This document shows positions 14,128 through 54,030 of a stretch of DNA of 54,033 bases, piece by piece. This DNA is from Bacteroidota bacterium. Its GTDB lineage: Bacteria; Bacteroidota; Bacteroidia; Cytophagales; Microscillaceae. The stretch spans positions 1-54,033 of the forward strand of contig RDXZ01000013.1 of NCBI GenBank assembly GCA_004293265.1, in the 5' to 3' direction. Both the position numbers and the translations under genes were made by a program. Each line of letters opens with the position of its first letter. Position 1 is the stretch's first letter. The notes below the pieces were generated by a model. That model saw only the letters and a list, made by a program, of their open reading frames with translations, was not told where the DNA came from and searched no databases.

Positions 14128-14233
14128 ATCTATACAAATAAAATTTTTATAAAAACCAAAAAATCATTTTAAATCTCTAAAATCTGCTTTATTTTTGTGC
14201 TTCTTTGCGATAGTTTTTTTTTTGTAAATCTTA
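14126..14233. repeat. Left copy of the island direct repeat
   Basis: 108 bp that match 23510-23616 except for one substitution (GCGATAG versus GTGATAG) and one T in a T-run. Non-coding. It includes a TATTTTTG -7-like motif at 14190-14197 reading inward, without a good -33 box. Confidence 0.9.
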
Positions 14234-14345
14234 AAAAAATAAGAATCATCTTAGATAATATAAACTAAATACGAACAAGTGCTTAGGTATTTTTGTCTAT
14301 ATTTTTATCTAAATTTAAAAAAAAAGAACATTTAATTAATAATTT

Positions 14346-20045: not shown

Positions 20046-21016
20046 TGATAAACATAAACTCCATTTGGGAAAATCAAAAACCAACAAACGATATTATAAT
20101 CAAAACTAAAATTGATGAAATATCACATTTTAATTGCTATGTCGCAACCAATAATATCACAAGACAGCATTTATATATTATGTCTATTTCAAAAAAAGTG
20201 GTAATTCCTGAATTAAAAAATTATCGTTTCAAAGGAGTTGAAATCTTTGCCATTGAAGTAGAAAACAATTTTGAACTTAATATTTATCTTTTAGACAATG
20301 ATTTGAAAGATATTTTTTCATTGTTCGTTCAAAATATCTTGGAAGATATTGAAAAATGTGTTACAGAAAATGAAGCCATTATAACAACGCTAAACGTAAT
20401 TTCAAAATGGAAGAAACTTTTTGATAAAATCAACTTCAATGGTTTATCTCTTGAACAACAAAAAGGATTGATAGGCGAATTATTGTTTCTCAACTATCTT
20501 TTGAGCAATAAGAAAATATCAACAAACGCTGTAAGTGCTTGGACAAGTACAGAACGAGAATTTCAAGCAAAAGATTTCACGTTGGGAACTATTGGGATTG
20601 AAATTAAGTTTACTTCTTCAATGCAACCAAAAATAAAAATTTCTAATGAAAAACAATTAGATGCTGAAAATTTAACAGAATTGTTTTTGGTTTTATATTC
20701 AACCGAAGCGGTAAAGGAAAATGGATTTTCGCTTAATTCAATCGTAGAACAAACCCGACAAAGTATTTCAACCGTTCAAGAACTCAATATTTTCAATGGT
20801 AAATTACAAATAAATGGCTATTTTGATGACGATAAAGAACATTATGGCAAAATGTACTCAATAAAAAAAATATTTGCTTTTGCTGTAGTTTCTGGCTTTC
20901 CTAAAATTGTGAAAACTGATTTACCGTTGGGAATTTATGATACTTCATATTCAATAGAAATTTCAGCAATTGAAAAATTTATTATAGATATTAAAGATAT
21001 TTTACAAAAAATTTAA
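20045..21016 (+). CDS. PD-(D/E)XK nuclease-motif protein (DUF4420-like)
   Basis: A 323-residue protein with the restriction-endonuclease-like core in its second half: GLIGELLFLNYLL (Glu145), KDFTLGT (Asp177) and IGIEIKFTSS with Glu186-x-Lys188, the expected active site. The first 120 residues are beta-rich. It is the likely cleavage subunit of the system. Its ATG shares one base with the stop of the Z1 gene, so translation is coupled. In other genomes this family usually follows a Z1 gene (from memory, not checked here). Confidence 0.88.
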   Translation: MININSIWENQKPTNDIIIKTKIDEISHFNCYVATNNITRQHLYIMSISKKVVIPELKNYRFKGVEIFAIEVENNFELNIYLLDNDLKDIFSLFVQNILEDIEKCVTENEAIITTLNVISKWKKLFDKINFNGLSLEQQKGLIGELLFLNYLLSNKKISTNAVSAWTSTEREFQAKDFTLGTIGIEIKFTSSMQPKIKISNEKQLDAENLTELFLVLYSTEAVKENGFSLNSIVEQTRQSISTVQELNIFNGKLQINGYFDDDKEHYGKMYSIKKIFAFAVVSGFPKIVKTDLPLGIYDTSYSIEISAIEKFIIDIKDILQKI

Positions 21017-21020
21017 AAAA

Positions 21021-23396
21021 ATGGAAAGAGCATTACAAAATTATATTGACGAACTAAAATCTGATATTTCTTCTTTGGTTTATTCCGAAGGAGAAGGAAC
21101 AAGTTTTGAAGACAAATTTACGGAGTATTGCATCGAAGTTTTAGAATCAATTGGAAAATCCGAAGGGGCGAGAGTTTTGTCATATATTCATCCAACCAAA
21201 CAAGGTACAATAGATTGGAAAATAAATGGCTTTTGTTTGAAAGACTTTGTAAAAGATGAAAACAAAAAAGAGTATTACGAAACGCTTGATTTATTTATTA
21301 CATTTTATAAAAATGAATATGGCTATAATATTACAAAAGATGATTATACAAAATCACTCAATCAAATAAAACGTTTTATTAATTATGCTTTAAAAGGTCA
21401 TATTGATTATATCGATAAATCGCATAAAGAACTTAACGAACTAATTAAAATAATAGAAAATCAAAGTAATAGTTTTGACAGAATCAATGTTTATTTTTTG
21501 ATAAACGGTTTTTCAAGCCACGAAAAAGAAAATATTGATATAAAAGATATTGATGTTTTTGTTCATACTTGGGATATTACACGATTATTTAAAATCAATG
21601 AATCAAATAGCATACACGAACCGATAGAAATAGATTTTGAAACATTTACCGAAAATGGAAAAGGTTTGCAATGTTTGCAAGTTCCCAATATTGATGAAAT
21701 GTACGATTGTTATTTGGCAATAGTTCAAGGCGAAATTCTCGCAAGGTTATACAAGGAATTTTCAAATGAATTGTTAGAAAGCAATGTGCGTGCTTTTTTA
21801 GGACAAACCGGAAAGTTTAATAAAGGAATAAGGGACACAATTCGTAATAAACCGCAAATGTTTTTGCCTTATAACAATGGAATTACTGCAACTGCTGAGA
21901 GCGTAGAAACAAAGTTTATCAATAATAATCAACTAATTATTACTAAATTAAAGGATTTTCAAATTGTAAATGGTGGACAAACAACGGCATCTCTTTATCA
22001 CACACAGAAAAAATTTAAAGACGTAGATTTGAGTAAAATATTTGTTCAAATGAAACTAACTGTCATTAAAGACAAAGAACAAAAAAATATTGAAGTGCCT
22101 AATATTTCACGATTTGCCAATAGTCAAAATAAAGTTTCTGAGTTAGATTTATCTTCCAATAATCCGTATTTTGTACAAATTGAAAATTTATCGAGAAAAA
22201 AATATGTTCTTAATCCTGATAACAAAAATCAATCTTTTTTATGGTTTTTTGAACGTACAAACGGACAATATCGCGAAGCATTGAATAAACAAACACCTAC
22301 ACAACAGAAAAAATTTAAAGAACAAAATCCTTCTAATTTAAAATTTTTGAAGTCAGATATAGCCAAATTTATTAACCTTTGGGAATTAGAACCACATTTT
22401 GTTGCACAAGGCTCACAGAAAAATTTTATTCATTTTACCAAAAAAATTAATGAACTTGTGAGTAAAAATAAATTACCTAGCGAAAATTTTTATCGCAAGT
22501 TAATTGCCAACGGCATTTTATTCAAAACAACAGATAAACTTTTTGGAAAGAAAAATATAGATGCCATTGGAGATACAAATTTAAAATCTTTTACAATTGC
22601 TTATACAATTTCTTATTTTCATTTTCTTACTAATAATCGTCTTGACCTTTGGAAAATCTATGAAAAACAAAAAATAGATGAGAATTTGAGTAATTATATC
22701 AAAGATATGTTAGTTTTTGTTCACAATCATTTAATTAAAGAAGCCAATAATAGTTTGATTTCTGAATACGCAAAAAGAGAATCGTCTTGGAAAAAATTAA
22801 AGGAAATACCTTATTCTATCAATTTGATAGATTGTTTGAAAGATTATTTGATTTTAGAAGAAGAAAAAATACAACGAGAAAAGGAAAAAGAATTGGATAC
22901 GACCACAATTGAAAATAGTATATATTTGGTAAGTGAAATCTATAGTATGGGTTTGAAATTTTGGGATGGCTTCAAAACGTATATTGAAACTAATAAAATA
23001 AATGAATTTGATTTTTATGATGCTTTTGATTTGCTCCAAAAACTAAATAACAAAACAAATTTATCTTTTAAAGCAACTAATTTTGGTAAGAAAGTTCTTG
23101 ATTTTATTCATCAAAATTTATCACTTGTAGAAGAAATTAAATCATTGTCAAACTTAGAAGAAAGTCCAATCATAGAGATAAAATTTATTTATGATAGGCT
23201 TTTGCTCATTTCAAAAGACAAATGGAAAAGTATTATTGATATAACAAATAGAAATAACATTTTTGATAATTTAGAACTTGCAAATATAAAATCAGTGCAA
23301 ATTTCTCTATCAAATAAAGAAAATCTAAAAGAAAATGCTTTAATTAAGTGCTATGAATCTTTACAAAAACTAAAAAAATTTAATATTGAGATATAA
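21021..23396 (+). CDS. AIPR family protein
   Basis: A 791-residue protein with the AIPR (abortive infection phage resistance) core at about 230-480: RAFLGQTGKFNKGIRDTI (258 on), FLPYNNGITATAE, and FQIVNGGQTTAS (313-324). The N-terminus has FEDKFTEYCIEVLE and TIDWKINGF, perhaps a degenerate nuclease-like region. The C-terminal 300 residues are helical and unassigned. It starts 4 bases after the nuclease gene and ends the operon. Its presence next to the restriction-like genes suggests an added effector or a sensor for phage. There is no clear intrinsic terminator after it. Confidence 0.9.
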   Translation: MERALQNYIDELKSDISSLVYSEGEGTSFEDKFTEYCIEVLESIGKSEGARVLSYIHPTKQGTIDWKINGFCLKDFVKDENKKEYYETLDLFITFYKNEYGYNITKDDYTKSLNQIKRFINYALKGHIDYIDKSHKELNELIKIIENQSNSFDRINVYFLINGFSSHEKENIDIKDIDVFVHTWDITRLFKINESNSIHEPIEIDFETFTENGKGLQCLQVPNIDEMYDCYLAIVQGEILARLYKEFSNELLESNVRAFLGQTGKFNKGIRDTIRNKPQMFLPYNNGITATAESVETKFINNNQLIITKLKDFQIVNGGQTTASLYHTQKKFKDVDLSKIFVQMKLTVIKDKEQKNIEVPNISRFANSQNKVSELDLSSNNPYFVQIENLSRKKYVLNPDNKNQSFLWFFERTNGQYREALNKQTPTQQKKFKEQNPSNLKFLKSDIAKFINLWELEPHFVAQGSQKNFIHFTKKINELVSKNKLPSENFYRKLIANGILFKTTDKLFGKKNIDAIGDTNLKSFTIAYTISYFHFLTNNRLDLWKIYEKQKIDENLSNYIKDMLVFVHNHLIKEANNSLISEYAKRESSWKKLKEIPYSINLIDCLKDYLILEEEKIQREKEKELDTTTIENSIYLVSEIYSMGLKFWDGFKTYIETNKINEFDFYDAFDLLQKLNNKTNLSFKATNFGKKVLDFIHQNLSLVEEIKSLSNLEESPIIEIKFIYDRLLLISKDKWKSIIDITNRNNIFDNLELANIKSVQISLSNKENLKENALIKCYESLQKLKKFNIEI

Positions 23397-23509: not shown

Positions 23510-23616
23510 ACATCTATACAAATAAAATTTTTATAAAAACCAAAAAATCATTTTAAATCTCTAAAATCTGCTTTATTTTTGTGCTTCTTTGTGATAGTTT
23601 TTTTTTGTAAATCTTA
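23510..23616. repeat. Right copy of the island direct repeat
   Basis: The match to 14126-14233 ends exactly after GTAAATCTTA. The gap 23397-23509 before it and 23617-23779 after it hold no gene and no good hairpin; an 8-bp inverted repeat (TAGATGTA 23457-23464, TACATCTA 23509-23516) touches the repeat edge. Confidence 0.9.
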
Positions 23617-23817
23617 GAAACCATAAATAATAAATGAGTTATAATTAAACCAATTAATTATTATCAAGTCAAATAAAAAAAACATTTTTTTTCCAAAAAA
23701 AATGATAAAACATATAATAATTTCACGTATCTTCTCACAAACTACCTTTAAAAAAATTTTAATTTTCAAAAATAATAACTATTTTTGCACCAATTAAATT
23801 TTTTTTTACCTAAAAAT

Positions 23818-41836: not shown

Positions 41837-43144
41837 TTATTTTATCAAACTTCCACTAATTCTCAATAAATTGATTTCTTGTACTTTTAATTGAAAATTG
41901 AGCAATAAAACTCGATTTTGAATTTCTAAAAAAGTTTGTTGTGCATCACGAAATTCTAAGGCAGTTATTTTTCCTAATTGAAATTTTTCGACTGTGATTT
42001 CCAAATTTTGTTTGGTAATAATTACATTTTCTTTTTCAATTTTCAATAATTCCAAAGAAGTTTGATATTGTTCGAAGGCTTGTGTAAGATTTGTTTCGGC
42101 TTCTAATTGTGTTTGTTCGATGGTAGTTTGTTGTCTTTTTTGTGCGATGACCGCATTTTGAATATTCCTTTGTCTTTCGTATCCATCAAAAATCGGAATA
42201 GTAATCGTAACTCGTCCATTTAGACCATAATTTTGATTAGTGCGTAAAATTCCCGCCCCTGCGACTGCGTTGGCATAATTATAACCTGCTGTAAAATTTA
42301 CACTCGGCAAAATTTGTCCTTTTGTGATTTGAGTATTGATAAAAGCGACATCGTTTTGTTTTCTTTGGATAAGCAATTGTGTATTTTGTGCTTTTAAATT
42401 CTCTAAAATTTCGTTATAAGTAATTGTTTTGGTGTCAGGTAGATTTTCACTGACTTCAAATTCAGTTTTTACATTTCTGTTCAATATTTGATTGAGTTGA
42501 ATTTTAGCGATTTTGATTTGTTGTAATTGTTGAATTAAATTAGCACTATCTCTTTTGGCATCAATTTGCGCTCTTAAATAATCGTTTTTTGACATGGCTC
42601 CCAGTTCAAATCTATCTTTGGCAATTCTGACTCTTTCTTGAGAAATGCTTAGATTTTCTGTTAAAACCTTTGCAGTTTGTTTGTTTTGAACGATATTGCA
42701 ATATGTGATAATTGTATTGGCTGTAATGTTTTCGAGTTGTAATCTAACATTTAGATTGGTAAGTTCTTTTTGTAAACCTAAGATTTGATACGTTCTTTGG
42801 GCGGCAAATCCATTGAAAATCAACCAGTTCATATTTACGCCAATATTTCCATTTCTATTGATAGCATTGTTTACATTTTGGACGCTTCCCGTCAAAAACT
42901 CTTGTTTTGCATTGATAACACTTCCGCCATAATCGATGTTACCTGTGATGGTAGGTTGTAAGCCAGCGTTTCCTTTTTGGTAATTATTTTGGGCAATTTG
43001 TTGGTCAAATTTGACTAATTGTGCGGCAAAATTTTGAGATAAAGCGATTTGTAATGCATCATCAATGGTGAGTATTTGAGCGAATAATTTTATTTCAAAG
43101 GAAAAAAATAAACAAAAAATAAATAAAAATATATTTTTATACAT
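41837..43144 (-). CDS. TolC family outer-membrane efflux protein
   Basis: A 435-residue protein. The signal peptide ends at LFA before QILT, followed by two outer-membrane-factor repeats of about 190 residues each with long coiled helices. Typical segments are LTIDDALQIALSQNF, NWLIFNGFAAQRTYQILGLQ and VTITIPIFDGYERQRNIQNA, ending in QLKVQEINLLRISGSL. It forms the trimeric exit duct of efflux or type I secretion machines. No membrane-fusion protein is adjacent; its partners are presumably elsewhere, or include the ABC ATPase 0.5 kb downstream. The DUF262 array's terminal repeat lies 60 bases upstream of its start. Confidence 0.93.
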   Translation of the reverse strand: MYKNIFLFIFCLFFSFEIKLFAQILTIDDALQIALSQNFAAQLVKFDQQIAQNNYQKGNAGLQPTITGNIDYGGSVINAKQEFLTGSVQNVNNAINRNGNIGVNMNWLIFNGFAAQRTYQILGLQKELTNLNVRLQLENITANTIITYCNIVQNKQTAKVLTENLSISQERVRIAKDRFELGAMSKNDYLRAQIDAKRDSANLIQQLQQIKIAKIQLNQILNRNVKTEFEVSENLPDTKTITYNEILENLKAQNTQLLIQRKQNDVAFINTQITKGQILPSVNFTAGYNYANAVAGAGILRTNQNYGLNGRVTITIPIFDGYERQRNIQNAVIAQKRQQTTIEQTQLEAETNLTQAFEQYQTSLELLKIEKENVIITKQNLEITVEKFQLGKITALEFRDAQQTFLEIQNRVLLLNFQLKVQEINLLRISGSLIK

Positions 43145-43201
43145 AAAAAACGATGATTTGATTACAAAAAAGAATGATTTTAATACAACATTTTTAAAGT
43201 T

Positions 43202-43341
43202 AAAATCTCTCCTTAAATCAAAAAATTAACATATATTTAAAGTATTTTGATATAAATTTATTGACAATCAAAGGTTTAGGAAGTGATGAAAAAACTTAGC
43301 CAAATAAGGTTTTTATTTTTATTTGGATAAGGTTTTTTTTG
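43202..43341. repeat. 140-bp direct repeat, copy after DUF262 module 2
   Basis: About 97% identical to 47136-47275: the few differences are one A/C, one extra A, and changes near the T-run. On the minus strand it starts 13 bases beyond the type-A gene's stop. It contains an 8-bp hairpin (CCAAATAA 43300-43307 with TTATTTGG 43319-43326) that may terminate transcription. It borders a tract of seven G (43341-43347). Confidence 0.92.
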
Positions 43342-43353
43342 GGGGGGTAAGGT

Positions 43354-45402
43354 TTAATTAAACTCTTTTTCTAATTTCTTATAACTTCCTGTAGTCAATT
43401 TCGAAGAAGTCATAACATATATAGATTTTTCATTGTGCCATTCAAATAAAAAATATTTTTGCTTAGAATATTTTAAAATTTCTTCATTTTTTATTAAAAA
43501 TTTTCGCCAATCTGTTATCTTATCAGCATCAAAATTTTTTAAAAAGGTTTCTATGTATTCCTTATAATTAGAATCTTTTATATCACCAGAAATTTTACTC
43601 AAAGCATCAAAGAAAATTTTATATCCTTTTTCACTTTTATTAGTAAAAAAAGTTCTCCAATCTGGATAATCATAAGGAAAATAATATTTATCTCCTATTA
43701 AATTACCATTTGTTCCTGTAGTATCATAAACAGCAAAATCTCCTTCTGTAAGTATAAACCTTATGATTAAATCTACACCTAAATTAATAATATTGTGATA
43801 GTTTTCCCATAAATCTTTAAATTTGGATATGTCTAAAACATCAGAAGTTTTACTATTTTCCAATAAACATTCTATTTTTCCATGCAAATATTTATGGTCT
43901 TCCGCTTTCCAAAAAATATGTTCTAATTCTTCTCTTTTGATGTTTGGTGGTGGGTTTTTATATAATTTCAGTTTATAAATTTCCTCCTCTGTCAGAGTAT
44001 TTTTATATTCATTTGTTGGTTTTAGTAAATCTAAAACTGATTCTTTAATTCCTTTTGCCAACGCAATACTTTCCTGAACTGCTTGGGTATTTTTAGAAAC
44101 ATTGCTAAAAAACCTTATTATTCTATAAAGTTCTGCATTATTAATTTTAGTTTGGTTGATTTGATATTGATTATTTTTCCACTCAAAAGATGCAGTATTT
44201 ACCAAATAAATTAAAACAGGGTATAAAGCAACTTTTTCATTGTTACCTATTTTTTTACCAGAAGTAAGACTTTTAAAATCAATAATATGAAATTCTTTAC
44301 CATTTTTAATTAATTCAATATTATCAATCAAATATTTCAAAACCAAAAAATACTTTTCAATTTTATTCAACAAATCACAATACCAATGTTCATTAAAATT
44401 AGTATTAAGTTCAGGTGGAATACCTACTTTTTTAAAATATTCACGAGTAATAGATACGGCATCTTGTTGTAACTCGATTTGTAAAAACCACGTTAGAAAT
44501 TCATTGACTCCTGCGTCTGCGGTTGGTTCTCCATCTTTTCTATTGCGCCAAAAAAAATCCTCTCTATCTTCCCATTGGTCGTTATATTTTTGCTGTACTT
44601 CTTGTTCTGTTGTTGTTGTGTCTTTAATTTGACTTAACAAAATAGGTTTTATATTTTCAGAGGCAGTGAGTGGTTCGCCTGTTGTGTTGATTATCACAAA
44701 CATTTCTTCGCCATGTGTGCGATTTTCCATATCATAATACAAAATTTTTACTTTTTCTAATAAAAAAAGCGAAAATAAACCTTTATCTATATCCTTAAAA
44801 CCCTTGTGTTCTTGAGATGGCATAAATGCCACCGCTATAATATCTAAGGCAGATAACATACTTTGCACACTTGCATCTAAGTTGTGTTCTTCGTGATACC
44901 AATCTTGTTTTTTAATATATTCACTTGGTATTTCTGTTGATGAATCATTTTTTAAAAAATATTCTTTAACCAAATCCATCATAAAAAACAAAGTATTTTC
45001 TCGCACCGCATAACGCAAATAAGGCTCATAATCGTCTTGCATTTCTTGTTCTGAAATCAACTTATGCTGAATAAGATTAGACATTTCTTTATTAAGCATA
45101 CCCAATAAAAGAAACAAAGTCGTTATGCGTTGTTGTCCATCGCAAAGATGAATATGCTTAGTAGGATTTTCGTAGGCGTATATCATACCTAACGTTAAAT
45201 CTTCCTCTTTTTTCTCATTAAAACTCTCCAAAAGACTATCTAAAAAACCTGTTACAAGTTCTGTTTTGTCTTTCTCTCCATGTATTTTGTTCCCCCAACA
45301 ATAATCACGTTGTAAGTCAGGAATGATGATTTTATGGTTGTTACTCAAAAGTTCGTTAAGCGAATAATAATTACCACTTTGAAGTTTATTTGTATTTGAC
45401 AT
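43354..45402 (-). CDS. DUF262 protein, type A, module 2
   Basis: A 682-residue protein. The N-terminal DUF262 domain has IIIPDLQRDYCWG (Gln31-Arg32) and LCDGQQRITTLF (Asp88-Arg92), the nucleotide-binding motif of GmrS/SspE-like proteins. The centre is helical. Near residue 490 it has ELEHIFWKAEDHKYLHGKI, a pattern (ED...K[YF]..G[KR]I) also present in the other type-A protein at 47296. The C-terminus has DWRKFLIKNEEIL, matching EWKKRLIKETDLL there. There is no complete His-Me finger, so this may be a sensor or NTPase arm rather than the nuclease. It starts 1 base after the type-B gene's stop, so the two are coupled. Confidence 0.88.
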   Translation of the reverse strand: MSNTNKLQSGNYYSLNELLSNNHKIIIPDLQRDYCWGNKIHGEKDKTELVTGFLDSLLESFNEKKEEDLTLGMIYAYENPTKHIHLCDGQQRITTLFLLLGMLNKEMSNLIQHKLISEQEMQDDYEPYLRYAVRENTLFFMMDLVKEYFLKNDSSTEIPSEYIKKQDWYHEEHNLDASVQSMLSALDIIAVAFMPSQEHKGFKDIDKGLFSLFLLEKVKILYYDMENRTHGEEMFVIINTTGEPLTASENIKPILLSQIKDTTTTEQEVQQKYNDQWEDREDFFWRNRKDGEPTADAGVNEFLTWFLQIELQQDAVSITREYFKKVGIPPELNTNFNEHWYCDLLNKIEKYFLVLKYLIDNIELIKNGKEFHIIDFKSLTSGKKIGNNEKVALYPVLIYLVNTASFEWKNNQYQINQTKINNAELYRIIRFFSNVSKNTQAVQESIALAKGIKESVLDLLKPTNEYKNTLTEEEIYKLKLYKNPPPNIKREELEHIFWKAEDHKYLHGKIECLLENSKTSDVLDISKFKDLWENYHNIINLGVDLIIRFILTEGDFAVYDTTGTNGNLIGDKYYFPYDYPDWRTFFTNKSEKGYKIFFDALSKISGDIKDSNYKEYIETFLKNFDADKITDWRKFLIKNEEILKYSKQKYFLFEWHNEKSIYVMTSSKLTTGSYKKLEKEFN

Positions 45403-45403
45403 T

Positions 45404-47113
45404 TTAGTTTATTTTGATGTTGTAAGTTGTTTTGAAGTTATTTATGAAATATTCTGCATTGTCTTTTACATTTTGAGCGTTCCATTCATTGTCATTGTTA
45501 AAAAATATTGTGTTTTTATCTTGAAATGATTTAGAAAAAACAATAAGTGTATGAGGTAATAAAAAGCCTTGTGTAATTTTCTGAAATAAGATATTTTTCT
45601 TTTGTAAGAAAGGATTATTACTCAAAGATGAATTTGTTGAACCATCTAATAAAACTAAATTACCAATAGAATGAAGTCCATTAGAGTTTTCTTCAATGTC
45701 TTTTTGATTTTTTATACTTAATTCATTATTAGGCGTTTGAGGGCTAATATGTTCAAGACTTTTGGTTTTAAATGTATTGAACTCAAATTTTTTGTTTCCA
45801 ATACCCATTACATTCATTCTTAAAAGTTGCTTATATGCGTGAGATTTTGCAACTCCTTCCTTTCCTTCCTCATTTTGATAAACATATTTCCCTGATAATT
45901 CACCCAATATATTTTCTGCTTCTATTTGCAAATCATCTTTATTTGTTTGTAAGTCTTTACATTTTTCATAAGAAACAATTAAATTCCAAACGGAAAATTT
46001 TTTAATTTCTTCTTTTGTTTTTAGTTTCATTTCGCCCAAACACCATAAAATAATTTCTTTTTTTGTTGATTGACCAGCATTGAAAGCCAACCCCAAATAA
46101 TTATAAATTTCAGCGTCATTAAACCAATCTTCAAAATGCTTTTGTAGTTTTCTTATTTTTAAAAAAGTTTCTTTTGCTTGTTTTTTATTTTTGATAAATT
46201 CAGAGGCAAAAGTATTGAAAGAATAGGTTTGTTCTTTGTTTTGTTCGTCTTTTTTATCAGATTTATATTTTTGAAAATAAATTTCTAAAAGCAAGCCCAT
46301 TGTATTATTTGTACCAAAAAAAACTTTTACATCTGTTCTATTCCACCAATATAACCATTTATCCCATTCTCTTGCGTATTTGCTACGCAATTCGTTTACT
46401 TCCCATTCTGTATTTTCTGTATTTTCTGCATTTGCTTCTGCACGTGAAGATTCAGATAAAAGTTTTGCTTTTATCAATTCTTCCTCTGTCATTTTGGCTT
46501 TCTGACCATTGAGCATCGTGAAAGATTTTATAGCATTTTCTTCTAAAATATTGATATAAATAATTTTTACATTTTCAAGTAAATATTTTGTAAAATTAGG
46601 TTTATCAACTTTTTCAAGGCTTTTATGGATAGTTTCTAACGCTTTTTTGAAATAAAAAATGTCTTGTGAGTCTTTATCATCTTTTTCATAAATTTCCGAA
46701 ATATTCATAACCTCTTTTTTATCAAAAATAGATTTTAAAAATTCGTGAGATTTTTTTCTTACTTTATACTCTAAAATATTAGGTGCAAATTCTGATACTT
46801 TTTGTAAGCGTAAATAATGAAGTAACAAAAATAAAGTAGTTGTTCTTTGTTGTCCATCAATTAAAATTGTACCTTCTGTATTTTCTGAAACGGTAACGCC
46901 TTGCAAAAAATATTCTGTTTTACTGCTTTGAAATTTACTGCTTTGAAAGGCATTTATAATGTCTTGCATCAGTTTTTCTACGCTACATTTTGCAGTACCA
47001 TTTTGATTTGGAACGCCCCATTTATACCCACGCTGATAATAGGGTATGATAAATTTCTTCGCATCAGCAAAATATTGCTGAATTGTTTTGAAGTTACTTT
47101 TATTTTCACTCAT
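45404..47113 (-). CDS. DUF262-HNH (GmrSD/SspE-like) protein, type B, module 2
   Basis: A 569-residue protein. The DUF262 domain has IPYYQRGYKWG (Gln27-Trp32) and ILIDGQQRTTTLFLLLHYL (Asp86-Arg90). The C-terminal DUF1524-like His-Me finger has SLEHISPQTP (His455), then LHSIGNLVLLDGSTN (His481) and LSNNPFLQKK. Single-chain DUF262-DUF1524 proteins include GmrSD type IV restriction enzymes and SspE, which cleave or nick modified or unmodified phage DNA in an NTP-dependent manner. It is the first gene of module 2 and has a conserved leader shared with the type-B gene at 49450-51159. Confidence 0.9.
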   Translation of the reverse strand: MSENKSNFKTIQQYFADAKKFIIPYYQRGYKWGVPNQNGTAKCSVEKLMQDIINAFQSSKFQSSKTEYFLQGVTVSENTEGTILIDGQQRTTTLFLLLHYLRLQKVSEFAPNILEYKVRKKSHEFLKSIFDKKEVMNISEIYEKDDKDSQDIFYFKKALETIHKSLEKVDKPNFTKYLLENVKIIYINILEENAIKSFTMLNGQKAKMTEEELIKAKLLSESSRAEANAENTENTEWEVNELRSKYAREWDKWLYWWNRTDVKVFFGTNNTMGLLLEIYFQKYKSDKKDEQNKEQTYSFNTFASEFIKNKKQAKETFLKIRKLQKHFEDWFNDAEIYNYLGLAFNAGQSTKKEIILWCLGEMKLKTKEEIKKFSVWNLIVSYEKCKDLQTNKDDLQIEAENILGELSGKYVYQNEEGKEGVAKSHAYKQLLRMNVMGIGNKKFEFNTFKTKSLEHISPQTPNNELSIKNQKDIEENSNGLHSIGNLVLLDGSTNSSLSNNPFLQKKNILFQKITQGFLLPHTLIVFSKSFQDKNTIFFNNDNEWNAQNVKDNAEYFINNFKTTYNIKIN

Positions 47114-47135
47114 AATTATTTTTTTAAAATTTTTA

Positions 47136-47275
47136 AAAATCTCTCCTTAAATCAAAAAATTAACCTATATTTAAAGTATTTTGATATAAATTTATTGACA
47201 ATCAAAGGTTTAGGAAGTGATGAAAAAAACTTAGCCAAATAAGGTTTTTATTTTTATTTGGGTAAGTTTTTTTTG
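47136..47275. repeat. 140-bp direct repeat, copy between the two DUF262 modules
   Basis: The partner of 43202-43341. On the minus strand it begins 21 bases after the stop of the type-A gene of module 1 and ends 22 bases before the type-B start of module 2. It contains the same hairpin (CCAAATAA 47235-47242 with TTATTTGG 47254-47261), a possible attenuator between the modules. Confidence 0.92.
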
Positions 47276-47295
47276 CTTTTTAACATTTGACTACC

Positions 47296-49443
47296 TTACT
47301 CAATTTTTTCACAATCTTTTTCGTTATTTGGGCGTTTTTTATCTCTAAATAATAAAACATATTTATTATCATTAGATATTCCTATATAATGTCCTACACA
47401 ATGCTTGTCCAACAAATCAGTTTCTTTGATGAGCCTTTTTTTCCACTCAGGCATACCAGATGGGCATACATATTCTTCTGCTATTTTATCAGGTGTTTTT
47501 TCTATCATTTGATTGACCAAATCTTTGAGATAATGCCTCCACCCACCATAAGCAAAATAGGATTTTAATTGTGATAAATCCTCCAATAAACACCTTTTCA
47601 TAGTATTTGTGGTATAACTCCGAGTTCCCCAATAGTTATAGAAGTGATTATCTTTAATAGTGAAAAATGCTCTTCGTATATCGTTTGACACATCATTTGA
47701 CACATCATTTGACACATCATTTGAAAAATGATTATCAAATACATTTTTTATTTTCACTAATTTTTTAGAATCAAAGTTATCAATATTATTTTCAACATCA
47801 ATACAATAAAGAGCAAAAATAATACGTCCTTTACAAAATTTAGTATCTTCTACGTGAAAAATAACCGTTCTATTGTTTGAATTTTGTATTATTATTTTTG
47901 CTTTTAAAATTTCTTCTTTTACTTGTTCAGATGCGAAATTTGAAGAAATGTTATTTTTAGATAAATATTCATAAATATTATCACAACCTATTGCAAGTTC
48001 TTTTATCAAGGTAATAGCACTTATGAAAGTAGCGTTGTCTATGTTTGCATTTTCAACAATATTACGTACCACACGAATCCAATCAGCAAAACCGTCTTGA
48101 TTTATTGGTGAAACATTGTTTTTTAATAAAAATACTGTTTGCGCATAAAAAAGGACACGTTTTTTGTACGTAACTCCACTAACTTCAGTAAATTCATTAA
48201 ATATAGTAGAACCTACTTTACAATAACTCCATAAATCAATATTTTGAGGTCTGAGATTATCAAAATTTTTAGTCTTATCAGCATATAAGTCCAAACATTT
48301 TACTAAATATTCAAAATCCTCTTTTGTATTAAAATCTTTTGGACTTACACTACTTGGATTATTAAATAAATGTTGTATTCTCTTTTCAATACGCTCTTTT
48401 TTAACTGCATCATCTGTAACAGTTCCTTGTTTTTGTTTAGATACAAGTTCTTTTTTTACTTGTTCTTTTTCTGTGTCATCTTCATAAATTTTTTGCTCTT
48501 GAGCATATAAGTTAATAGCAATTCCTGCAAAAAAATTAATGAAAATTTCATCGAAAGTGGTTTTATTATTTTTCCAAAATAAATCAGTCCAAAGGTTATC
48601 TGTTTTAAAAGCAAAAGTATTTTGTAAATCTATATTTTCTTCCCATTTTTCATTGTGTATTTTTTCTTCAAAACGAGCCTTAAACTGCTCAAATTCACTC
48701 AAAGCCTTTCCCCTTGCGTTCATTTTCAAGTAAAGCTCGTCAGAAAGATTAAAATCTTCTAAATTTAGAAATTTAAAAGAAATAATGGGTTGTTTTTTTA
48801 AATCAATCAACGCGTTTTTTACCTTTTCTACTTCTTTGTATTCATCAATACTCTCTATTAAATTAACTAATTTAGGATTGTCTTTTGGTAAAAGATAATT
48901 TGGTTCTATCAATTTTCCCCAAATTTCATTGGCATCTTTTTCCTTAAATTTATTGTGAATTTCATCAAGCATTGTAAGCATAGATTGTACCGTAGGGTCT
49001 TTTTCCCAAGCAAGGAAAAACCAAGATGCGTCTTTGATTTTTTCAGAAAGGGTTTTATCTGCAATATCGATTTTATTTTTGATTAATTGCGTACAAAAAT
49101 CTCTTGCACTTATGCGTGTTTTGTATGAAAATGAAATTTTTTCAAATTCACTTTGCTTTTCTGCTTTTTGGGCAATGTACCAATGCAACAAAAATAAAGT
49201 TGTAAGGCGTTGTTGTCCATCAATAGGCACAAAAATATCATTTTCAACTTTACCATACACAAAATCAAGTTCGATACTTTTATTATTTGTGAGGCAATCA
49301 AATAAATCATCAAGAAATTTATCTCTTATTTCTTTTGATTTCTGGTCATTGCGTCCTTGCGCATAATCACGTTGCACGATAGGAATTTCAATTGTATATT
49401 TTTGGGCAAGTTCCCAAAAAGTCATAGTTTTTATTTGGCTCAT
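47296..49443 (-). CDS. DUF262 protein, type A, module 1
   Basis: A 715-residue protein. DUF262 motifs are IPIVQRDYAQGRND (Gln24-Tyr27) and PIDGQQRLTTLFLLHWY (Asp75-Arg79). It shares with the other type-A protein the element IFHVEDTKFCKGRI (around 550) and the C-terminal EWKKRLIKETDLL with a following strand (KYVLLFRDK). The C-terminus also holds YNYWGTRSYTTNT. Residues near 585-600 are a short in-frame tandem repeat (SNDV). Six bases separate it from the upstream type-B gene. The sequence is far diverged from its paralogue at 43354, so the duplication of the modules is old, or the cassettes were acquired separately. Confidence 0.87.
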   Translation of the reverse strand: MSQIKTMTFWELAQKYTIEIPIVQRDYAQGRNDQKSKEIRDKFLDDLFDCLTNNKSIELDFVYGKVENDIFVPIDGQQRLTTLFLLHWYIAQKAEKQSEFEKISFSYKTRISARDFCTQLIKNKIDIADKTLSEKIKDASWFFLAWEKDPTVQSMLTMLDEIHNKFKEKDANEIWGKLIEPNYLLPKDNPKLVNLIESIDEYKEVEKVKNALIDLKKQPIISFKFLNLEDFNLSDELYLKMNARGKALSEFEQFKARFEEKIHNEKWEENIDLQNTFAFKTDNLWTDLFWKNNKTTFDEIFINFFAGIAINLYAQEQKIYEDDTEKEQVKKELVSKQKQGTVTDDAVKKERIEKRIQHLFNNPSSVSPKDFNTKEDFEYLVKCLDLYADKTKNFDNLRPQNIDLWSYCKVGSTIFNEFTEVSGVTYKKRVLFYAQTVFLLKNNVSPINQDGFADWIRVVRNIVENANIDNATFISAITLIKELAIGCDNIYEYLSKNNISSNFASEQVKEEILKAKIIIQNSNNRTVIFHVEDTKFCKGRIIFALYCIDVENNIDNFDSKKLVKIKNVFDNHFSNDVSNDVSNDVSNDIRRAFFTIKDNHFYNYWGTRSYTTNTMKRCLLEDLSQLKSYFAYGGWRHYLKDLVNQMIEKTPDKIAEEYVCPSGMPEWKKRLIKETDLLDKHCVGHYIGISNDNKYVLLFRDKKRPNNEKDCEKIE
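47683..47724. repeat. 12-bp tandem repeat, in frame
   Basis: TTTGACACATCA is repeated three times plus a partial copy inside the type-A gene of module 1, encoding NDVS units. A 12-base unit changes length without changing frame. Confidence 0.9.
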
Positions 49444-49449
49444 AGTTTT

Positions 49450-51159
49450 TTAAGAAATAAAGGGTTTAAGTTTATTTTCAATGTCAGATAAATATTCTTG
49501 GCTATCTTTGTCAGTCCAAAGAAACATTTGTGAAATATCTTTGCTATAATACTTTAAAAATACATTTTTTGTACAAATTGGAATAAAAACGCCTTTTGTG
49601 TCTTGTGCAATAATTTTATTTCTTTTTACAGAAAAAATAGCATTTTTATAAGAACGATTTGTGCCTGCATCTAATAATACAAGATTAGCCAAACCATTTA
49701 TTTCATTTTTATTTCCTGAAATTTTATTGTAAAATTCAATCACATCATTAAAAAGAGTATCAAAAATATCTTGTGTAAGCGTATTTTCATCTACTTTCAA
49801 TTTTTCTACTATTTCTTCTTTTATTGTTGTTTCAGAAATATTTACCTTTTCTACTTCTGCTTTAGTTTCAGTTATCCAAATTAACCAATCTTTCTTTTGT
49901 GTAATTGCTTGAGATTGCTGTGCGTGAATATGCTCAATATCCCAATTTTCACCTTTAAATTTGGTAAATGAAAAATTATTACTTGTTTCTGATTCCAATA
50001 AGGTAGCAATATTATGAAGCAATAAAATACTTTTTATCCTACTATCTCCAAACTCAATAGTTTCCAGATTTTCGTTTGGTTTAAAAGTGATTTTTGCGTG
50101 ATTTATAATTTCTTGCTTAAATTCTTTTTTCGTTTTGCCTTTTTTCCAAGATAAAATGTCACTTACTTTTTCACCTTTCCAAATCAAAAACCCAATCAAA
50201 TGATACAATTCCCTATTTTCATACCATTCTTGCAAAGTTTGAAAGGTGATTCTTACTTTTTGCCATTCAGTTTCTACCCAAGTTTGTTTATTAGATTCTT
50301 TGGCAAAATTTTCATTATAAGATAAAAAAGTAGAATATTTATCTTTTTCGTTTTTATTTTTATCTGCAATCAAATCAAAAATAAAATCAATTCTTGTAGC
50401 AGTTGGTTTATCATTTGAAATAAAAGACCAGAAAGCATCATCTTGTAAAGTATATTCAATGTTATCCCATTGTTGAGCGATTTCATTTTGTTTGAGTTGT
50501 AAAATTTCTGCATTTTTATCATTTTGCACATTGATTAAAAACAAGGCTTTTATCAATTCTGCATTAGTAAGTGGAATTTTTCCACTGTTTATTCTTGTAA
50601 AAATTTTGATAGATTCTTGTTTGGAGTTTTCAATATTTGGTACTTCATACCAAATTACTTTTACTTGTTCGGTTAGTTTTTTATGAAAAGCCTCTTTATC
50701 AGCCGACTTATTTCCAAACCATTTTTTGACTGTTTCATAAGCATTGAAAAAATAATAATTATCAATATTATCCATTTCTTTACCTTCATAGTTAGAAATC
50801 CAAGTTTTGTTCTCCACATTTTCCTTGATTTTACTTAGAAAATCCTTACTACTTTCTCTTGTACGATAATCAATACTATATTTTTCTTTGCCTAAATAAG
50901 AAAGAATTATATAAATAGTTGTGGTGCGTTGTTGCCCATCTATGAGTTCTGTTTTATCTTTTTCATTATCAATGACATTTTTTACAACTATAGGTTGCAA
51001 ACAATAAAATTCATTTGAATTACCACTAAATTCGTTGATGTCATTTAGAAGCTGCTCTACTTCTGTTTTTGTCCATTTGTAGCCACGTTGATAATCTTCC
51101 ACAAGAAAATGAAAGTCTTTTAATTCTGCAATACTTTTTATTGCTGTGTTATTACTCAT
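49450..51159 (-). CDS. DUF262-HNH (GmrSD/SspE-like) protein, type B, module 1
   Basis: A 569-residue protein, the same length as its counterpart in module 2. DUF262 motifs are VEDYQRGYKWTKTEV (Gln24-Trp29) and ELIDGQQRTTTIYIIL (Asp74-Arg78). The C-terminal His-Me-like region has WDIEHIHAQ (His410), then INGLANLVLLDAGTNRSY and KNAIFSVKR. The second histidine of the module 2 protein (LHSIGN) is Asn here, so one catalytic-site residue may differ; the family shows both forms. The leader before the ATG (about 28 bases) is shared with the other type-B gene. First of the DUF262 genes in the transcript. Confidence 0.9.
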   Translation of the reverse strand: MSNNTAIKSIAELKDFHFLVEDYQRGYKWTKTEVEQLLNDINEFSGNSNEFYCLQPIVVKNVIDNEKDKTELIDGQQRTTTIYIILSYLGKEKYSIDYRTRESSKDFLSKIKENVENKTWISNYEGKEMDNIDNYYFFNAYETVKKWFGNKSADKEAFHKKLTEQVKVIWYEVPNIENSKQESIKIFTRINSGKIPLTNAELIKALFLINVQNDKNAEILQLKQNEIAQQWDNIEYTLQDDAFWSFISNDKPTATRIDFIFDLIADKNKNEKDKYSTFLSYNENFAKESNKQTWVETEWQKVRITFQTLQEWYENRELYHLIGFLIWKGEKVSDILSWKKGKTKKEFKQEIINHAKITFKPNENLETIEFGDSRIKSILLLHNIATLLESETSNNFSFTKFKGENWDIEHIHAQQSQAITQKKDWLIWITETKAEVEKVNISETTIKEEIVEKLKVDENTLTQDIFDTLFNDVIEFYNKISGNKNEINGLANLVLLDAGTNRSYKNAIFSVKRNKIIAQDTKGVFIPICTKNVFLKYYSKDISQMFLWTDKDSQEYLSDIENKLKPFIS

Positions 51160-51192
51160 AATTATTTTAAAATTTTTAAAAATCTCGCAAAT

Positions 51193-51435
51193 CTAAATAA
51201 AAAAATTTAATATTACAACTACAAAATATAGTAAAATAAAATATTTTATTTTGATGTTTTTAGCAAATATTTTTAGGGTAAAAAATAAAATTACCCCAAA
51301 AATACCAACATACAAAGGTGGATACATTTGATAAGCACCATAAAAATCGCCCTGCCACAACAACCAAACACTTCGCTGAAATCCACAGCCCAAACACGAA
51401 AAACCTAAGTATTTTTTGAACAAACAAGGCAACAT
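51193..51435 (-). CDS. DUF2752 family small membrane protein
   Basis: An 80-residue protein with the DUF2752 signature: a cysteine pair region FSCLGCGFQRSVWLL (the family has CPxCGxxR) and YQMYPPLYVG, followed by two hydrophobic helices. Members are short membrane proteins of unknown function in Bacteroidota. Its start touches the stop of the next upstream gene (51436) with no gap, and 33 bases separate it from the DUF262 array. Confidence 0.75.
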   Translation of the reverse strand: MLPCLFKKYLGFSCLGCGFQRSVWLLWQGDFYGAYQMYPPLYVGIFGVILFFTLKIFAKNIKIKYFILLYFVVVILNFFI

Positions 51436-51732
51436 TTATATTTTAATTTTTTCTTCTGAGATGTTGCCTGCACTATCAAGCGAAATTCTAATGCGTTGTT
51501 CTGCGGGCTTCATCAATGCCAGCACAATCCATACCAGCCACCACGCCCCACACGTACAAAGCCCAATAATCAAGTGTAAAACGTGATTGACTTTTCCGCC
51601 TGCTTTGCCCAAAACTGCCACAAGTCCTTTGTCGTTGCGGTCAATTACTGTGTAACCTTCCATTGTTTTGGTAGAAATAATTTGCGAAAAACGTTGAAAT
51701 TTCGCTTCATAATCAGAATTTTGATTTTCCAT
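51436..51732 (-). CDS. Small single-pass membrane protein
   Basis: A 98-residue protein. Residues 1-45 are soluble (FQRFSQIISTKTMEGYTVIDR), 46-72 form a hydrophobic segment with CTCGAWWLVWIVLAL, and the tail is a short strand-rich end (IRISLDSAGNI). The pattern resembles small superinfection-type or SHOCT-like membrane proteins, but no family is named. It lies 41 bases after the WYL regulator gene and directly abuts the DUF2752 gene. Confidence 0.65.
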   Translation of the reverse strand: MENQNSDYEAKFQRFSQIISTKTMEGYTVIDRNDKGLVAVLGKAGGKVNHVLHLIIGLCTCGAWWLVWIVLALMKPAEQRIRISLDSAGNISEEKIKI

Positions 51733-51773
51733 TTTTTTTATTTTTATAAATTGATAAATAATGATAATTTTTT

Positions 51774-52754
51774 TTAGTAAAGAGTTGGTCTTGAAGGCGA
51801 TGCGTCATTTTCGTCATAATACGTTTTGATGTGTGCATTTGCTTTTTGCATACTATCTTTGAGCGACTCAGGAGCAATGACTTTTACATTTTCTCCAAAA
51901 TGAAAAATCTCTTGCACAAAATCATAAGTAATATAAACATTCAGACGAATACGCACCTCTTTATTATCATCTTCAAAAACAATTTCTTGAGAGTGATGCA
52001 AAGGTAATTTTTTTACATACCGCCCTTGTATTGGTTCAAAAGAAAGTATCACTTCTTCTACTTTTTTATTTTGATAGTCATAAGGTTTTAAAATACCAAA
52101 GCAATCTTTATAAAAATTATCAGCATCAAAATTAAGATTTTTGAATTTTCTTTTTGTGTTGATAATGCCTTTTTCTTGTGAAAATCTATCCAAAGAAAAA
52201 TTATAAATTTGTTTATTAATTTGCTCATACAATCCATCTTTTTTACCTGACATTTCTACTATTTTGGCTATCAAATACCAACGATTACGAAATTGTTTCA
52301 GTAAATAAGGCTCAACAGTATATTCCCTTTCGTCGTACCAAAAATTATCGTATTTAAAAGTAATAATATTACAATTTTTACAAGATTCGACTAATGTATC
52401 AAAATAAGTTTGTTCCACTAAATTTGCTCTTTCGTATTGTAATACTTTTGTGTTTTTATTATTGACTGTGCGTTTCATATAAAAAATTGTTTGTTCTAAC
52501 AAATATTTTTTTTCTTTGTTATTAAATGTTTCTTCCAAAGAATATTCGCCTTTTTTATTTTTTAAAAAGGTAAAACCCATATCTTCCAAATCTTCTAAAT
52601 CTCTTTCTATAGTTTTGTAAGAGATTTTTTGATTTGGGATATTGTTATAAGAAGCATTTTTTGTTTTCTCGGATAAATTTTTACAAGAAAGTTCTTCCTT
52701 ATCCAGCAAAGAAATAAGGTAAAAATATCTTCTGAGTTTGTTAATAATTGTCAT
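51774..52754 (-). CDS. WYL-domain transcriptional regulator
   Basis: A 326-residue regulator. The N-terminal part (1-70) is a helix-turn-helix of the DeoR type (SYKTIERDLEDLEDMGF). The WYL domain spans about 120-210, with RNRWYLIAK at 157-164. The C-terminal extension (WCX-like) spans 215-310 (VILSFEPIQGRYVKKLPLHHSQEI). WYL regulators such as BrxR and CapW repress phage-defence operons and sense nucleic-acid ligands. It heads the transcript that leads through two small membrane genes into the DUF262 array. A 7-bp inverted repeat over its promoter region may be its own operator. Confidence 0.9.
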   Translation of the reverse strand: MTIINKLRRYFYLISLLDKEELSCKNLSEKTKNASYNNIPNQKISYKTIERDLEDLEDMGFTFLKNKKGEYSLEETFNNKEKKYLLEQTIFYMKRTVNNKNTKVLQYERANLVEQTYFDTLVESCKNCNIITFKYDNFWYDEREYTVEPYLLKQFRNRWYLIAKIVEMSGKKDGLYEQINKQIYNFSLDRFSQEKGIINTKRKFKNLNFDADNFYKDCFGILKPYDYQNKKVEEVILSFEPIQGRYVKKLPLHHSQEIVFEDDNKEVRIRLNVYITYDFVQEIFHFGENVKVIAPESLKDSMQKANAHIKTYYDENDASPSRPTLY

Positions 52755-52783
52755 ATTTTTTTGAGTTTATTTTAAATCTTATG

Positions 52784-52819
52784 CAAAGTAAATGACCGAC
52801 TTGGACAAAACCTGTCCAA
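52784..52819 (-). promoter_or_regulatory. Candidate operator and -7 box of the WYL gene
   Basis: TTGGACA (52801-52807), 5 bases, TGTCCAA (52813-52819): a perfect 7-bp inverted repeat. On the minus strand a TTACTTTG -7 box (52784-52791) lies 9 bases downstream of it, so a dimer bound there would overlap the promoter spacer and -33 region. I see no good -33 TTTG at the expected distance. Confidence 0.6.
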
Positions 52820-53052: not shown

Positions 53053-54030
53053 ATGAAAAAAATAAGTATCAGCAAAGATATGCTTTGGAAAGGCATCATA
53101 GAAGATTTATTCTTTGAATTTTTAGAATATTTTTTTGATGATTGGGCAAAAGAATACGTAGATTTTAATATCGAACCTGTTTTTTTAAATGATGAATTGG
53201 AGAAAATTTATGAAAAAACTAAAGAAGGCGGCAGAAGTGCTGATAAATTAGTCAAAGTATTTTTAAAGAATGGTAAAGAACAATATCTTTTCTTGCACAT
53301 TGAAATACAAGGATATGAAGATTCGTTGTTTCCTTATCGAATGTTTGTTAGTTTTTACCGAATACTTGATAATTTGGTGCAAAAAGACACCAATAAAGGT
53401 TTTAAAATTACAGACATACCTAAAATAATGGCTTTTGCTATCTATACAGATGAAGTACCTGATTTTAAACCTACTGAGTTTAAATACGATTGTTTTGAAA
53501 CTACTTTAAATTATAATTTTAAAACTTTCAAAATCTTAGATAAAAATATTGATGAGCTAAACATAAACAATAATATTTTTAGTTATGTAGTGCAAGCAGT
53601 TCGATATGCAGTCGATAAAAATAAAAAAACAGACTTATCACAATTAGAATGGAAGTTTGATTTGATGGAACGCTTGACAAAAGCGGGTTATGACAATAGA
53701 AAAAAACAATTAGTTTGGTATTTTATTAAAAACTATATTGGATTTAAAGCAAAAGAATATTCAAAAAAATTAGAAAATAAAATAAACAAAAAACCTAAAA
53801 GTATGACTTTAACAGAAATGATTATCCAAGAGGCAAAAGCCGAAGGAAGAGAAGAAGGTGAGGCAAAAGGAATAGAAAAAGGAAGAGCGAAAGAAAAAGC
53901 GGAATCTAACGTAAAGAACACGCTTAAACTATTTTCAAAAGGTATGAAAATACACGAAATTTCTGAAATTCTTGAGATTTCTATCGAAGAAGTAAAAGAA
54001 ATTATAGAAAAAAATAAACATTCTTCTTAA
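53053..54030 (+). CDS. Rpn/PD-(D/E)XK family nuclease, transposase-like
   Basis: A 325-residue protein of the Rpn family (recombination-promoting nuclease, PDDEXK fold). The core (about 35-110) has RSADKLVKVFLKNGKEQYLF with Asp64, then HIEIQGYEDSLFPYRMFVSF with Glu84-x-Gln86, the usual ExQ form of this family. The middle part (110-230) is helical. Residues about 255-295 are an E/K/R/A-rich coiled coil (AEGREEGEAKGIEKGRAKEK), followed by a helix-turn-helix-like tail (MKIHEISEILEISIEEV). Such proteins are often numerous, variable accessory genes. It is divergent to the WYL regulator, and complete. Confidence 0.85.
   Translation: MKKISISKDMLWKGIIEDLFFEFLEYFFDDWAKEYVDFNIEPVFLNDELEKIYEKTKEGGRSADKLVKVFLKNGKEQYLFLHIEIQGYEDSLFPYRMFVSFYRILDNLVQKDTNKGFKITDIPKIMAFAIYTDEVPDFKPTEFKYDCFETTLNYNFKTFKILDKNIDELNINNNIFSYVVQAVRYAVDKNKKTDLSQLEWKFDLMERLTKAGYDNRKKQLVWYFIKNYIGFKAKEYSKKLENKINKKPKSMTLTEMIIQEAKAEGREEGEAKGIEKGRAKEKAESNVKNTLKLFSKGMKIHEISEILEISIEEVKEIIEKNKHSS

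What the first reader, a model, noticed from the sequence alone, without database searches (positions are those of the whole stretch)
43202..52819. Two tandem type B-type A DUF262 modules led by a WYL regulator
Seen in the sequence: four consecutive DUF262 genes form two pairs. Each pair is a 569-residue type-B protein (motif QRGYKW, C-terminal LEHI/IEHI His-Me region) followed at 1 or 6 bp by a longer type-A protein (motif QRDY, shared ED...G[KR]I and W[RK]K.LIK segments). A WYL regulator and two small membrane genes precede them on the same strand. Established: DUF262 with DUF1524 is the GmrSD/SspE/BrxU restriction architecture, and WYL proteins control phage-defence operons. Inference: B is the nuclease and A a partner NTPase or specificity subunit of a two-component restriction system, duplicated to broaden the range of phages or DNA modifications recognised.
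Basis: partly seen in the sequence, partly recalled or inferred. Interest (0 to 1): 0.85.

Follow-up and report, generated by a model that had tools for sequence, protein, structure and literature searches.

The report
Two unlike phage-restriction gene pairs
Side by side in one genome lie two distantly related copies of a recently described two-protein bacterial defence (GrwAB type) that probably cuts phage DNA carrying chemical modifications; the second copy looks like a recent insertion between 154-base repeats rather than a duplicate of the first.

Summary
In detail: two B-A pairs of DUF262 genes on the minus strand, gaps 6 and 1 bp, behind a WYL regulator gene. B has DUF262 plus a His-Me nuclease. 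A has DUF262, a helical linker and its own C-terminal domain. Linkage is close to absolute: in 89 of 89 type-A loci with upstream sequence, B lies 5' on the same strand, 12 of 12 viral-contig loci agree, and one genome has a B-A fusion. A and B trees agree (Mantel r 0.74-0.82; highest permuted value 0.26).

The architecture is that of GrwAB, a two-protein GmrSD-like type IV restriction system published in 2025; TgvAB has the opposite gene order and an unrelated partner. I file both modules as GrwAB-type. The GrwAB sequence itself was not held, so direct homology is untested.

The modules belong to different clades in both trees, while the 154-bp non-coding repeats flanking module 2 are still 94% identical, so an already diverged module was inserted. 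A terminator separates the modules; WYL plausibly leads only module 1; the two small membrane genes were found with no other module. Two modules in tandem were seen only here among 98 loci.

The parts
51774..52754 (-). WYL/WCX transcriptional regulator gene (326 aa); likely controls module 1
   Evidence: Pfam WYL 2.4e-9, WCX 4.9e-9; a WYL gene within 5 kb upstream on the same strand in 11 of 67 other modules; control itself is inference
52801..52819 (.). perfect inverted repeat TTGGACA-N5-TGTCCAA, 47 bp upstream of the WYL start codon: candidate operator
   Evidence: only perfect copy in the window; function is inference
51436..51732 (-). 98-aa small membrane protein, no family; probably a passenger
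   Evidence: no Pfam hit; not found in any other module locus
51193..51435 (-). 80-aa DUF2752 membrane protein; probably a passenger
   Evidence: Pfam DUF2752 2.4e-14; not found in any other module locus
49450..51159 (-). B1: DUF262 - helical linker - His-Me (DUF1524) nuclease, GrwA-type subunit of module 1 (R78, H410, N492, N501)
   Evidence: alignments; motif counts
47296..49443 (-). A1: DUF262 - linker - conserved C-terminal domain, GrwB-type subunit of module 1
   Evidence: AlphaFold2 pLDDT 88.4; residues 1-505 match SspE, DndI and, weakly, BrxU
47121..47274 (.). copy 1 of the 154-bp direct repeat (terminator hairpin 47223-47273 plus leader), between A1 and B2
   Evidence: 94% identical to 43191-43339; two full copies in the 4.03-Mb genome; hairpin z -4.8
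45404..47113 (-). B2: DUF262 - linker - His-Me nuclease, GrwA-type subunit of module 2
   Evidence: Pfam GmrSD_N 8e-24, GmrSD_C 3e-14; profile match to the other B clade E 5.6e-38
43354..45402 (-). A2: DUF262 - linker - conserved C-terminal domain, GrwB-type subunit of module 2
   Evidence: C-terminal domain matches that of the other clade, probability 98.3%, E 1.8e-14
43191..43339 (.). copy 2 of the direct repeat, after A2; its distal part is the native leader of the outer-membrane efflux gene 41837-43144
   Evidence: leader present upstream of the orthologue in both congeners held

Best explanation
These are two GrwAB-type two-gene restriction modules. In each, B (GrwA-like) carries a DUF262 NTP-dependent sensor domain, a helical linker and a His-Me nuclease. 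A (GrwB-like) carries a second, intact DUF262 domain, a similar linker and a family-specific C-terminal domain where the nuclease would sit. Inferred mechanism: A and B form a complex on incoming DNA, one or both DUF262 domains sense a modified base, NTP binding or hydrolysis by both releases the nuclease of B, and the phage DNA is cut, so phages with modified genomes (for example glycosylated hydroxymethylcytosine or 7-deazaguanine) are restricted. The modules diverged long before they met. Module 2 was added next to module 1 together with duplication of a 154-bp stretch (terminator plus the leader of the neighbouring efflux gene), as described for restriction-modification genes (insertion with long target duplication), so two specificities may be stacked at one site. 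Shown here: domain content, invariant motifs, B-A linkage, A-B co-evolution, clade membership, flanking repeats, absence of the modules beside the same neighbour gene in two congeners. Inferred: complex formation, recognition of modified DNA, cleavage, insertion mechanism, WYL control of module 1.
For: Domains. B immediately or nearly 5' of A in 89/89 loci with upstream sequence, from Bacteroidota, Bacillota, Actinomycetota, Pseudomonadota, Spirochaetota, Campylobacterota and others, most often with a 4-bp overlap; one pair is split by an IS3 element; further modules; 12/12 on viral contigs; one natural B-A fusion of 1262 aa in L113. Plasmids: the 15 records where B1 matches over at least 80% of its length are the same 15 that lead the A1 list. 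Mantel r 0.74-0.82, no permutation of 2000 above 0.26, 39 of 83 splits shared; module 2 with the same six relatives in both trees, 100% support in the B tree. NTPase and nuclease residues invariant. A1 model residues 1-505 match SspE (Z 13.8), DndI (Z 11.8) and weakly BrxU (Z 5.5). Published GrwAB has the same order and domains, needs both genes and both DGQQR motifs, and restricts Tevenvirinae and Queuovirinae; escapers map to the 7-deazaguanine enzyme DpdA (PMC12137116). B1 residue spacing H410-N492-N501 (82, 9) resembles GrwA H431-N521-N530 (90, 9). Repeat and site evidence.
Against: No GrwA/GrwB sequence was held, so homology to the tested proteins is inferred from architecture, order and residue spacing. 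B2 has only 30 residues between the His and the first Asn (82 in B1, 90 in GrwA), and module 2 lies in a remote clade. No complex was modelled. The C-terminal domain of A has no convincing structural match, so its role is unknown. The genome is a 265-contig draft (91.6% complete, 3.3% contamination). The 154-bp repeat includes a leader type that also precedes B1 and another DUF262 gene, so recombination between pre-existing leaders could replace target duplication.
Confidence: 0.78

Rival explanations
1. Module 2 arose by duplication of module 1 in place, followed by divergence.
For: Same gene order, same lengths of B1 and B2, adjacency.
Against: B1/B2 31% and A1/A2 26% identity over parts only; different clades in both trees; flanking non-coding repeat still 94% identical, so the juxtaposition is recent compared with the divergence.
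Confidence: 0.03
2. B is a self-sufficient GmrSD/BrxU-like nuclease and A is an antagonist or guard (a TA-like pair), or a factor needed only against phage inhibitors such as IPI*.
For: B has the complete architecture of single-chain GmrSD enzymes; the TgvAB authors list an anti-inhibitor role as one possibility (PMC11411939).
Against: GrwA alone gave no protection, and mutating DGQQR in either partner abolished it (PMC12137116); A keeps a complete set of NTPase motifs, which a passive inhibitor would not need.
Confidence: 0.15
3. All four proteins act as one machine, the two modules interacting or exchanging subunits.
For: Adjacency on one strand.
Against: Two modules at one site were seen in 1 of 98 loci; each module type occurs alone elsewhere and co-evolves with its own partner; a terminator lies between them.
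Confidence: 0.05
4. The direct repeat is a dispersed intergenic element rather than an insertion footprint.
For: Half copies and similar leaders occur elsewhere: the hairpin half after a GmrSD gene on contig C107 and a similar leader before B1 and before that gene.
Against: Only two full copies in 4.03 Mb, placed exactly on either side of module 2; distal part is the native efflux-gene leader in congeners; flanking repeats at 6 of 95 modules against 2 of 397 gene-bounded control spans, p 0.0009, 0.013 without the window.
Confidence: 0.25

Closest known systems
GrwAB (GmrSD-like type IV restriction enzyme of V. cholerae WASA strains; Adams et al. 2025, PMC12137116)
   Same: Two-gene operon; first gene DUF262 + His-Me nuclease, second gene DUF262 + long C-terminal part of unknown domains; same motif sets; N-to-N spacing 9 and, in module 1, a similar long His-to-Asn spacing.
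TgvAB (V. cholerae VPI-2; Vizzarro et al. 2024, PMC11411939)
   Same: Two DUF262 proteins, one with a His-Me nuclease, both needed.
   Different: Opposite gene order (DUF262-only first); TgvA is distinct from GrwB outside DUF262 (PMC12137116). Probable Tgv-type pairs found here in Gammaproteobacteria have 441-526 aa then 641-670 aa proteins and no type-A C-terminal domain.
SspE, BrxU, DndI, Eco94GmrSD (single-chain GmrSD family)
   Same: DUF262, helical linker and His-Me nuclease as in B; A1 residues 1-505 match SspE Z 13.8, DndI 11.8, BrxU 5.5.
   Different: Single proteins; A lacks the nuclease and has another C-terminal domain.
Insertion with long target duplication of restriction-modification genes (Nobusato et al. 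2000, cited in PMC3031569 and PMC4978471)
   Same: Restriction genes flanked by long direct repeats derived from the target site.
   Different: Described for R-M gene complexes; here a modification-dependent two-gene module inserted beside another.

Membership tests
GrwAB | Two-gene operon, nuclease-bearing DUF262 gene first, DUF262-only gene second | tested here: met
   both modules, gaps 6 and 1 bp; 89/89 relatives
GrwAB | GrwA: QR, DGQQR, FxxxN and His...Asn...Asn (N-N spacing 9) | tested here: met
   B1 R78/H410/N492/N501; B2 R90/H455/N485, second Asn nine residues on
GrwAB | Long His-to-Asn spacing (90 in GrwA) | tested here: inconclusive
   module 1 has 82, module 2 has 30; relatives mostly 64-116. 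Not stated as a criterion in the paper
GrwAB | GrwB: N-terminal DUF262 with intact motifs and long C-terminal part of unknown domains | tested here: met
   A1 715 aa, A2 682 aa; motifs invariant; C-terminal domain shared by both clades
GrwAB | Sequence homology to V. cholerae GrwA and GrwB | not testable with these tools
   the sequences were not in any collection reached
GrwAB | Both genes required; restricts phages with modified DNA | not testable with these tools
   needs phage assays
TgvAB | DUF262-only gene upstream of the nuclease gene | tested here: not met
   order is the reverse in both modules
Single-chain GmrSD / BrxU / SspE | One protein, without an obligatory DUF262 partner gene | tested here: not met
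   type-A partner next to B in all complete loci examined
GmrSD domain family (Pfam GmrSD_N / GmrSD_C) | DUF262 and DUF1524 profile matches above cut-off | tested here: met
   GmrSD_N in all four above cut-off; GmrSD_C in B2 (53 bits) and just under cut-off in B1 (22.1 against 23)
Insertion with long target duplication | Long direct repeats flank the insert | tested here: met
   154 bp, 94% identical, either side of module 2
Insertion with long target duplication | Related genome has the same site with one copy and no insert | tested here: inconclusive
   congeners have the neighbour gene and part of its leader once and no module there, but the site differs beyond position 43241

The most novel reading that the evidence does not exclude
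GrwAB-type modules spread as stand-alone cassettes that insert beside one another at recurrent hairpin/leader junctions, duplicating the junction, so a genome can stack modification-dependent restriction systems of different specificity and lose them again by recombination between the repeats; the conserved C-terminal domain of subunit A would be the exchangeable reader of the DNA modification.
Probability: 0.22. Interest if true: 0.62.

Novelty: new member of a known kind. Interest (0 to 1): 0.42.

Why it matters
GrwAB was described in 2025 from one V. cholerae island, and why two DUF262 proteins are needed is open. This work shows that the pair is an old, almost inseparable unit across many phyla, including a natural one-chain fusion (useful for structural work), and names invariant residues in the partner's C-terminal domain (E511, K514, E532, G539 of A1) for mutagenesis. 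It gives a natural side-by-side pair of divergent modules in which specificity can be compared in one strain, and suggests that such modules insert with long target duplications, as restriction-modification genes do.

Tried and rejected
Local duplication: rejected. TgvAB membership: rejected on gene order. PADLOC HEC-06/Orf5/SspE matches: partial-length DUF262 similarity, not taken as assignment. phmmer of B1 and A1 against PDB sequences: nothing; profiles found DndI, SspE, BrxU and two further DUF262 chains. Fold search with the C-terminal domain of a type-A relative (pLDDT 91.5): no match above noise (best Z 6.9 over 80 residues); its fold is neither assigned nor called new. Pfam over 63 type-A proteins: no recurrent domain beyond GmrSD_N. 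WYL as a fixed component: not supported, 11/67 upstream against 5/67 same-strand downstream. DUF2752 and the 98-aa gene as components: no other occurrence. Sigma-70 promoter scan: fewer sites than in shuffled sequence, uninformative. A maximum-likelihood tree of A with the mixture model did not finish; FastTree was used. Two modules in tandem elsewhere: none in 98 loci, of which 67 had 5 kb or more upstream and 67 downstream. The second long repeat pair in the window (14126-14237/23510-23620) is part of a dispersed family and was not used as evidence.
Full report
OBSERVATION. In transcription order on the minus strand: WYL regulator (52754-51774), 98-aa protein, DUF2752 protein, B1, A1, B2, A2 (ending at 43354). 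All four large proteins carry GmrSD_N (DUF262); B2 has a clear GmrSD_C (DUF1524) domain and B1 one just under the cut-off; A1 and A2 have none. B1 and B2 are 31% identical over 368 residues, A1 and A2 26% over the DUF262 part. Padloc gave only partial-length hits to HEC-06, Orf5 and SspE.

LINKAGE. In 89 of 89 type-A genes with upstream sequence, a type-B gene lies 5' on the same strand, most often overlapping by 4 bp; the largest gap (1353 bp) contains an IS3 element; three more were cut by contig ends. Further modules from the window's phylum and from Gammaproteobacteria agree, as do 12 of 12 loci on viral contigs, and in L113 the two are one 1262-aa protein, B at about 123-632 and A at about 644-1257. 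Conversely, the 15 plasmid records in which B1 matches over most of its length are the same 15 that lead the A1 list.

CO-EVOLUTION AND ORIGIN OF THE TANDEM. Trees of 86 A and B partners agree: Mantel r 0.74 or 0.82 by tree method, no value above 0.26 in 2000 permutations, 39 of 83 splits shared (mixture-model B tree, FastTree for A). Shared host ancestry may add to this, but the modules cross phyla. Module 2 groups in both trees with the same six relatives (L047, L048, L128, L176, L177, L178; 100% support in the B tree) and module 1 does not. Profile comparison of the two clades shows that they share the type-A C-terminal part (98.3%, E 1.8e-14) and the B linker and nuclease (E 5.6e-38), while a B-against-A control gave nothing. 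So these are two members of one system that parted long before they met. Among 98 module loci only the window has two modules at one site.

FLANKING REPEATS. The gap between A1 and B2 and the gap after A2 hold a 154-bp direct repeat (47121-47274 and 43191-43339, 94% identical). It starts with a 20-bp-arm hairpin followed by T residues, a strong terminator (z -4.8 and -3.3), and ends in a leader. The 4.03-Mb genome has two full copies and a half copy. Both congeners held keep the efflux gene downstream (88% and 81% protein identity) and a conserved leader, which is the distal part of copy 2, but have no restriction genes there. The repeat being far less diverged than the proteins, module 2 was added as an already different unit. 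Long direct repeats at inserted restriction genes are known as insertion with long target duplication (Nobusato et al. 2000, as cited in PMC3031569 and PMC4978471). Elsewhere, flanking repeats were found at 6 of 95 modules (two of them the window's own) against 2 of 397 gene-bounded control spans (p 0.0009; 0.013 without the window). The half copy lies after a one-chain GmrSD gene (732 aa) on contig C107, whose 5' flank is 88% identical to that of B1 up to the start codon. Recombination between such shared flanks is therefore an alternative to target duplication.

ARCHITECTURE AND MECHANISM. In 45 type-B proteins QR, DGQQR, FxxxN, EH, N492 and N501 are invariant; in 63 type-A proteins DGQQR, N242, E511 and E532 are invariant and QR, K514, G539 nearly so. 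A1 was predicted with confidence 88. Residues 1-505 match SspE (Z 13.8), DndI (11.8) and weakly BrxU (5.5), that is DUF262 plus linker. The part that replaces the nuclease, predicted alone in a relative with confidence 91.5, matches nothing convincingly. I infer that A and B are two NTP-binding sensors with one nuclease, acting as a complex, and that the C-terminal domain of A positions or reads DNA. This matches the experiments on GrwAB: both genes are needed, DGQQR mutants of either protein and nuclease mutants of GrwA are dead, phages with modified bases are restricted, and escapers map to the modification enzyme DpdA (PMC12137116).

COMPARISON. GrwAB has the same order, domains and residue pattern; module 1 also has a similar long His-to-Asn spacing (82 against 90), module 2 a short one (30). 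TgvAB has the reverse order and a distinct partner (PMC11411939, PMC12409362); probable Tgv-type pairs seen in Gammaproteobacteria had neither the order nor the C-terminal domain. Sequences of GrwA and GrwB were not available, so membership rests on architecture. 'GrwAB-type' is used in that sense.

REGULATION. Short gaps (41, 0, 33, 6 bp) make WYL to A1 one plausible transcription unit, with a perfect inverted repeat 47 bp upstream of the WYL start as candidate operator. The terminator and the second leader suggest that module 2 is a separate unit. WYL regulators are known partners of defence loci (PMC9122601), but here a WYL gene is frequent rather than fixed (11 of 67 upstream), and the DUF2752 and 98-aa genes were seen only here.

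VERDICT. The new points are how tight and widespread the pair is, that the tandem is a juxtaposition of diverged modules and not a duplication, and that the second module carries insertion-like repeats.

Noticed in passing
window 14496-23396, with repeats at 14126-14237 and 23510-23620: A probable restriction-modification operon (C5 cytosine methylase, Z1-domain protein, AIPR abortive-infection protein and two further genes) lies between two 112-bp direct repeats of 97% identity; about eleven more diverged copies of that repeat occur elsewhere in the genome.
   Followed up: partly
L255 (G000 contig C107) 10250-12448, flanks 10157-10253 and 12585-12651: A one-chain DUF262-DUF1524 protein (732 aa) with an extra N-terminal domain of about 150 residues; its 5' flank is 88% identical to that of B1 and its 3' hairpin 94% identical to the one after A1.
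   Followed up: partly
G000, contigs C226, C258, C95, C167, C1, C32, C144, C233: Besides the window genes the draft genome has about twelve more DUF262 genes, eight of them of a similar short size (open frames of 358-397 aa).
   Followed up: no
L113 1878-5666 (Victivallis MAG): Natural fusion of type B and type A in one 1262-aa reading frame; a candidate for structural work.
   Followed up: partly
L226, L228, L229, L230, L233, L234 (Gammaproteobacteria): Probable TgvAB-type pairs: a DUF262-only gene followed by a DUF262 gene of 641-670 aa; residue numbers (R86, H568, about N600 in L228) resemble those of TgvB.
   Followed up: partly
window 53053-54030: Gene weakly related to Rpn-family nuclease/transposase genes (TIGR01784, 2e-7, below cut-off) at the contig end, divergent from the WYL gene, so the outer border of the defence locus is not seen.
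   Followed up: no
window 285-960 and 974-1650: Tandem direct duplication of about 680 bp at 77% identity.
   Followed up: no
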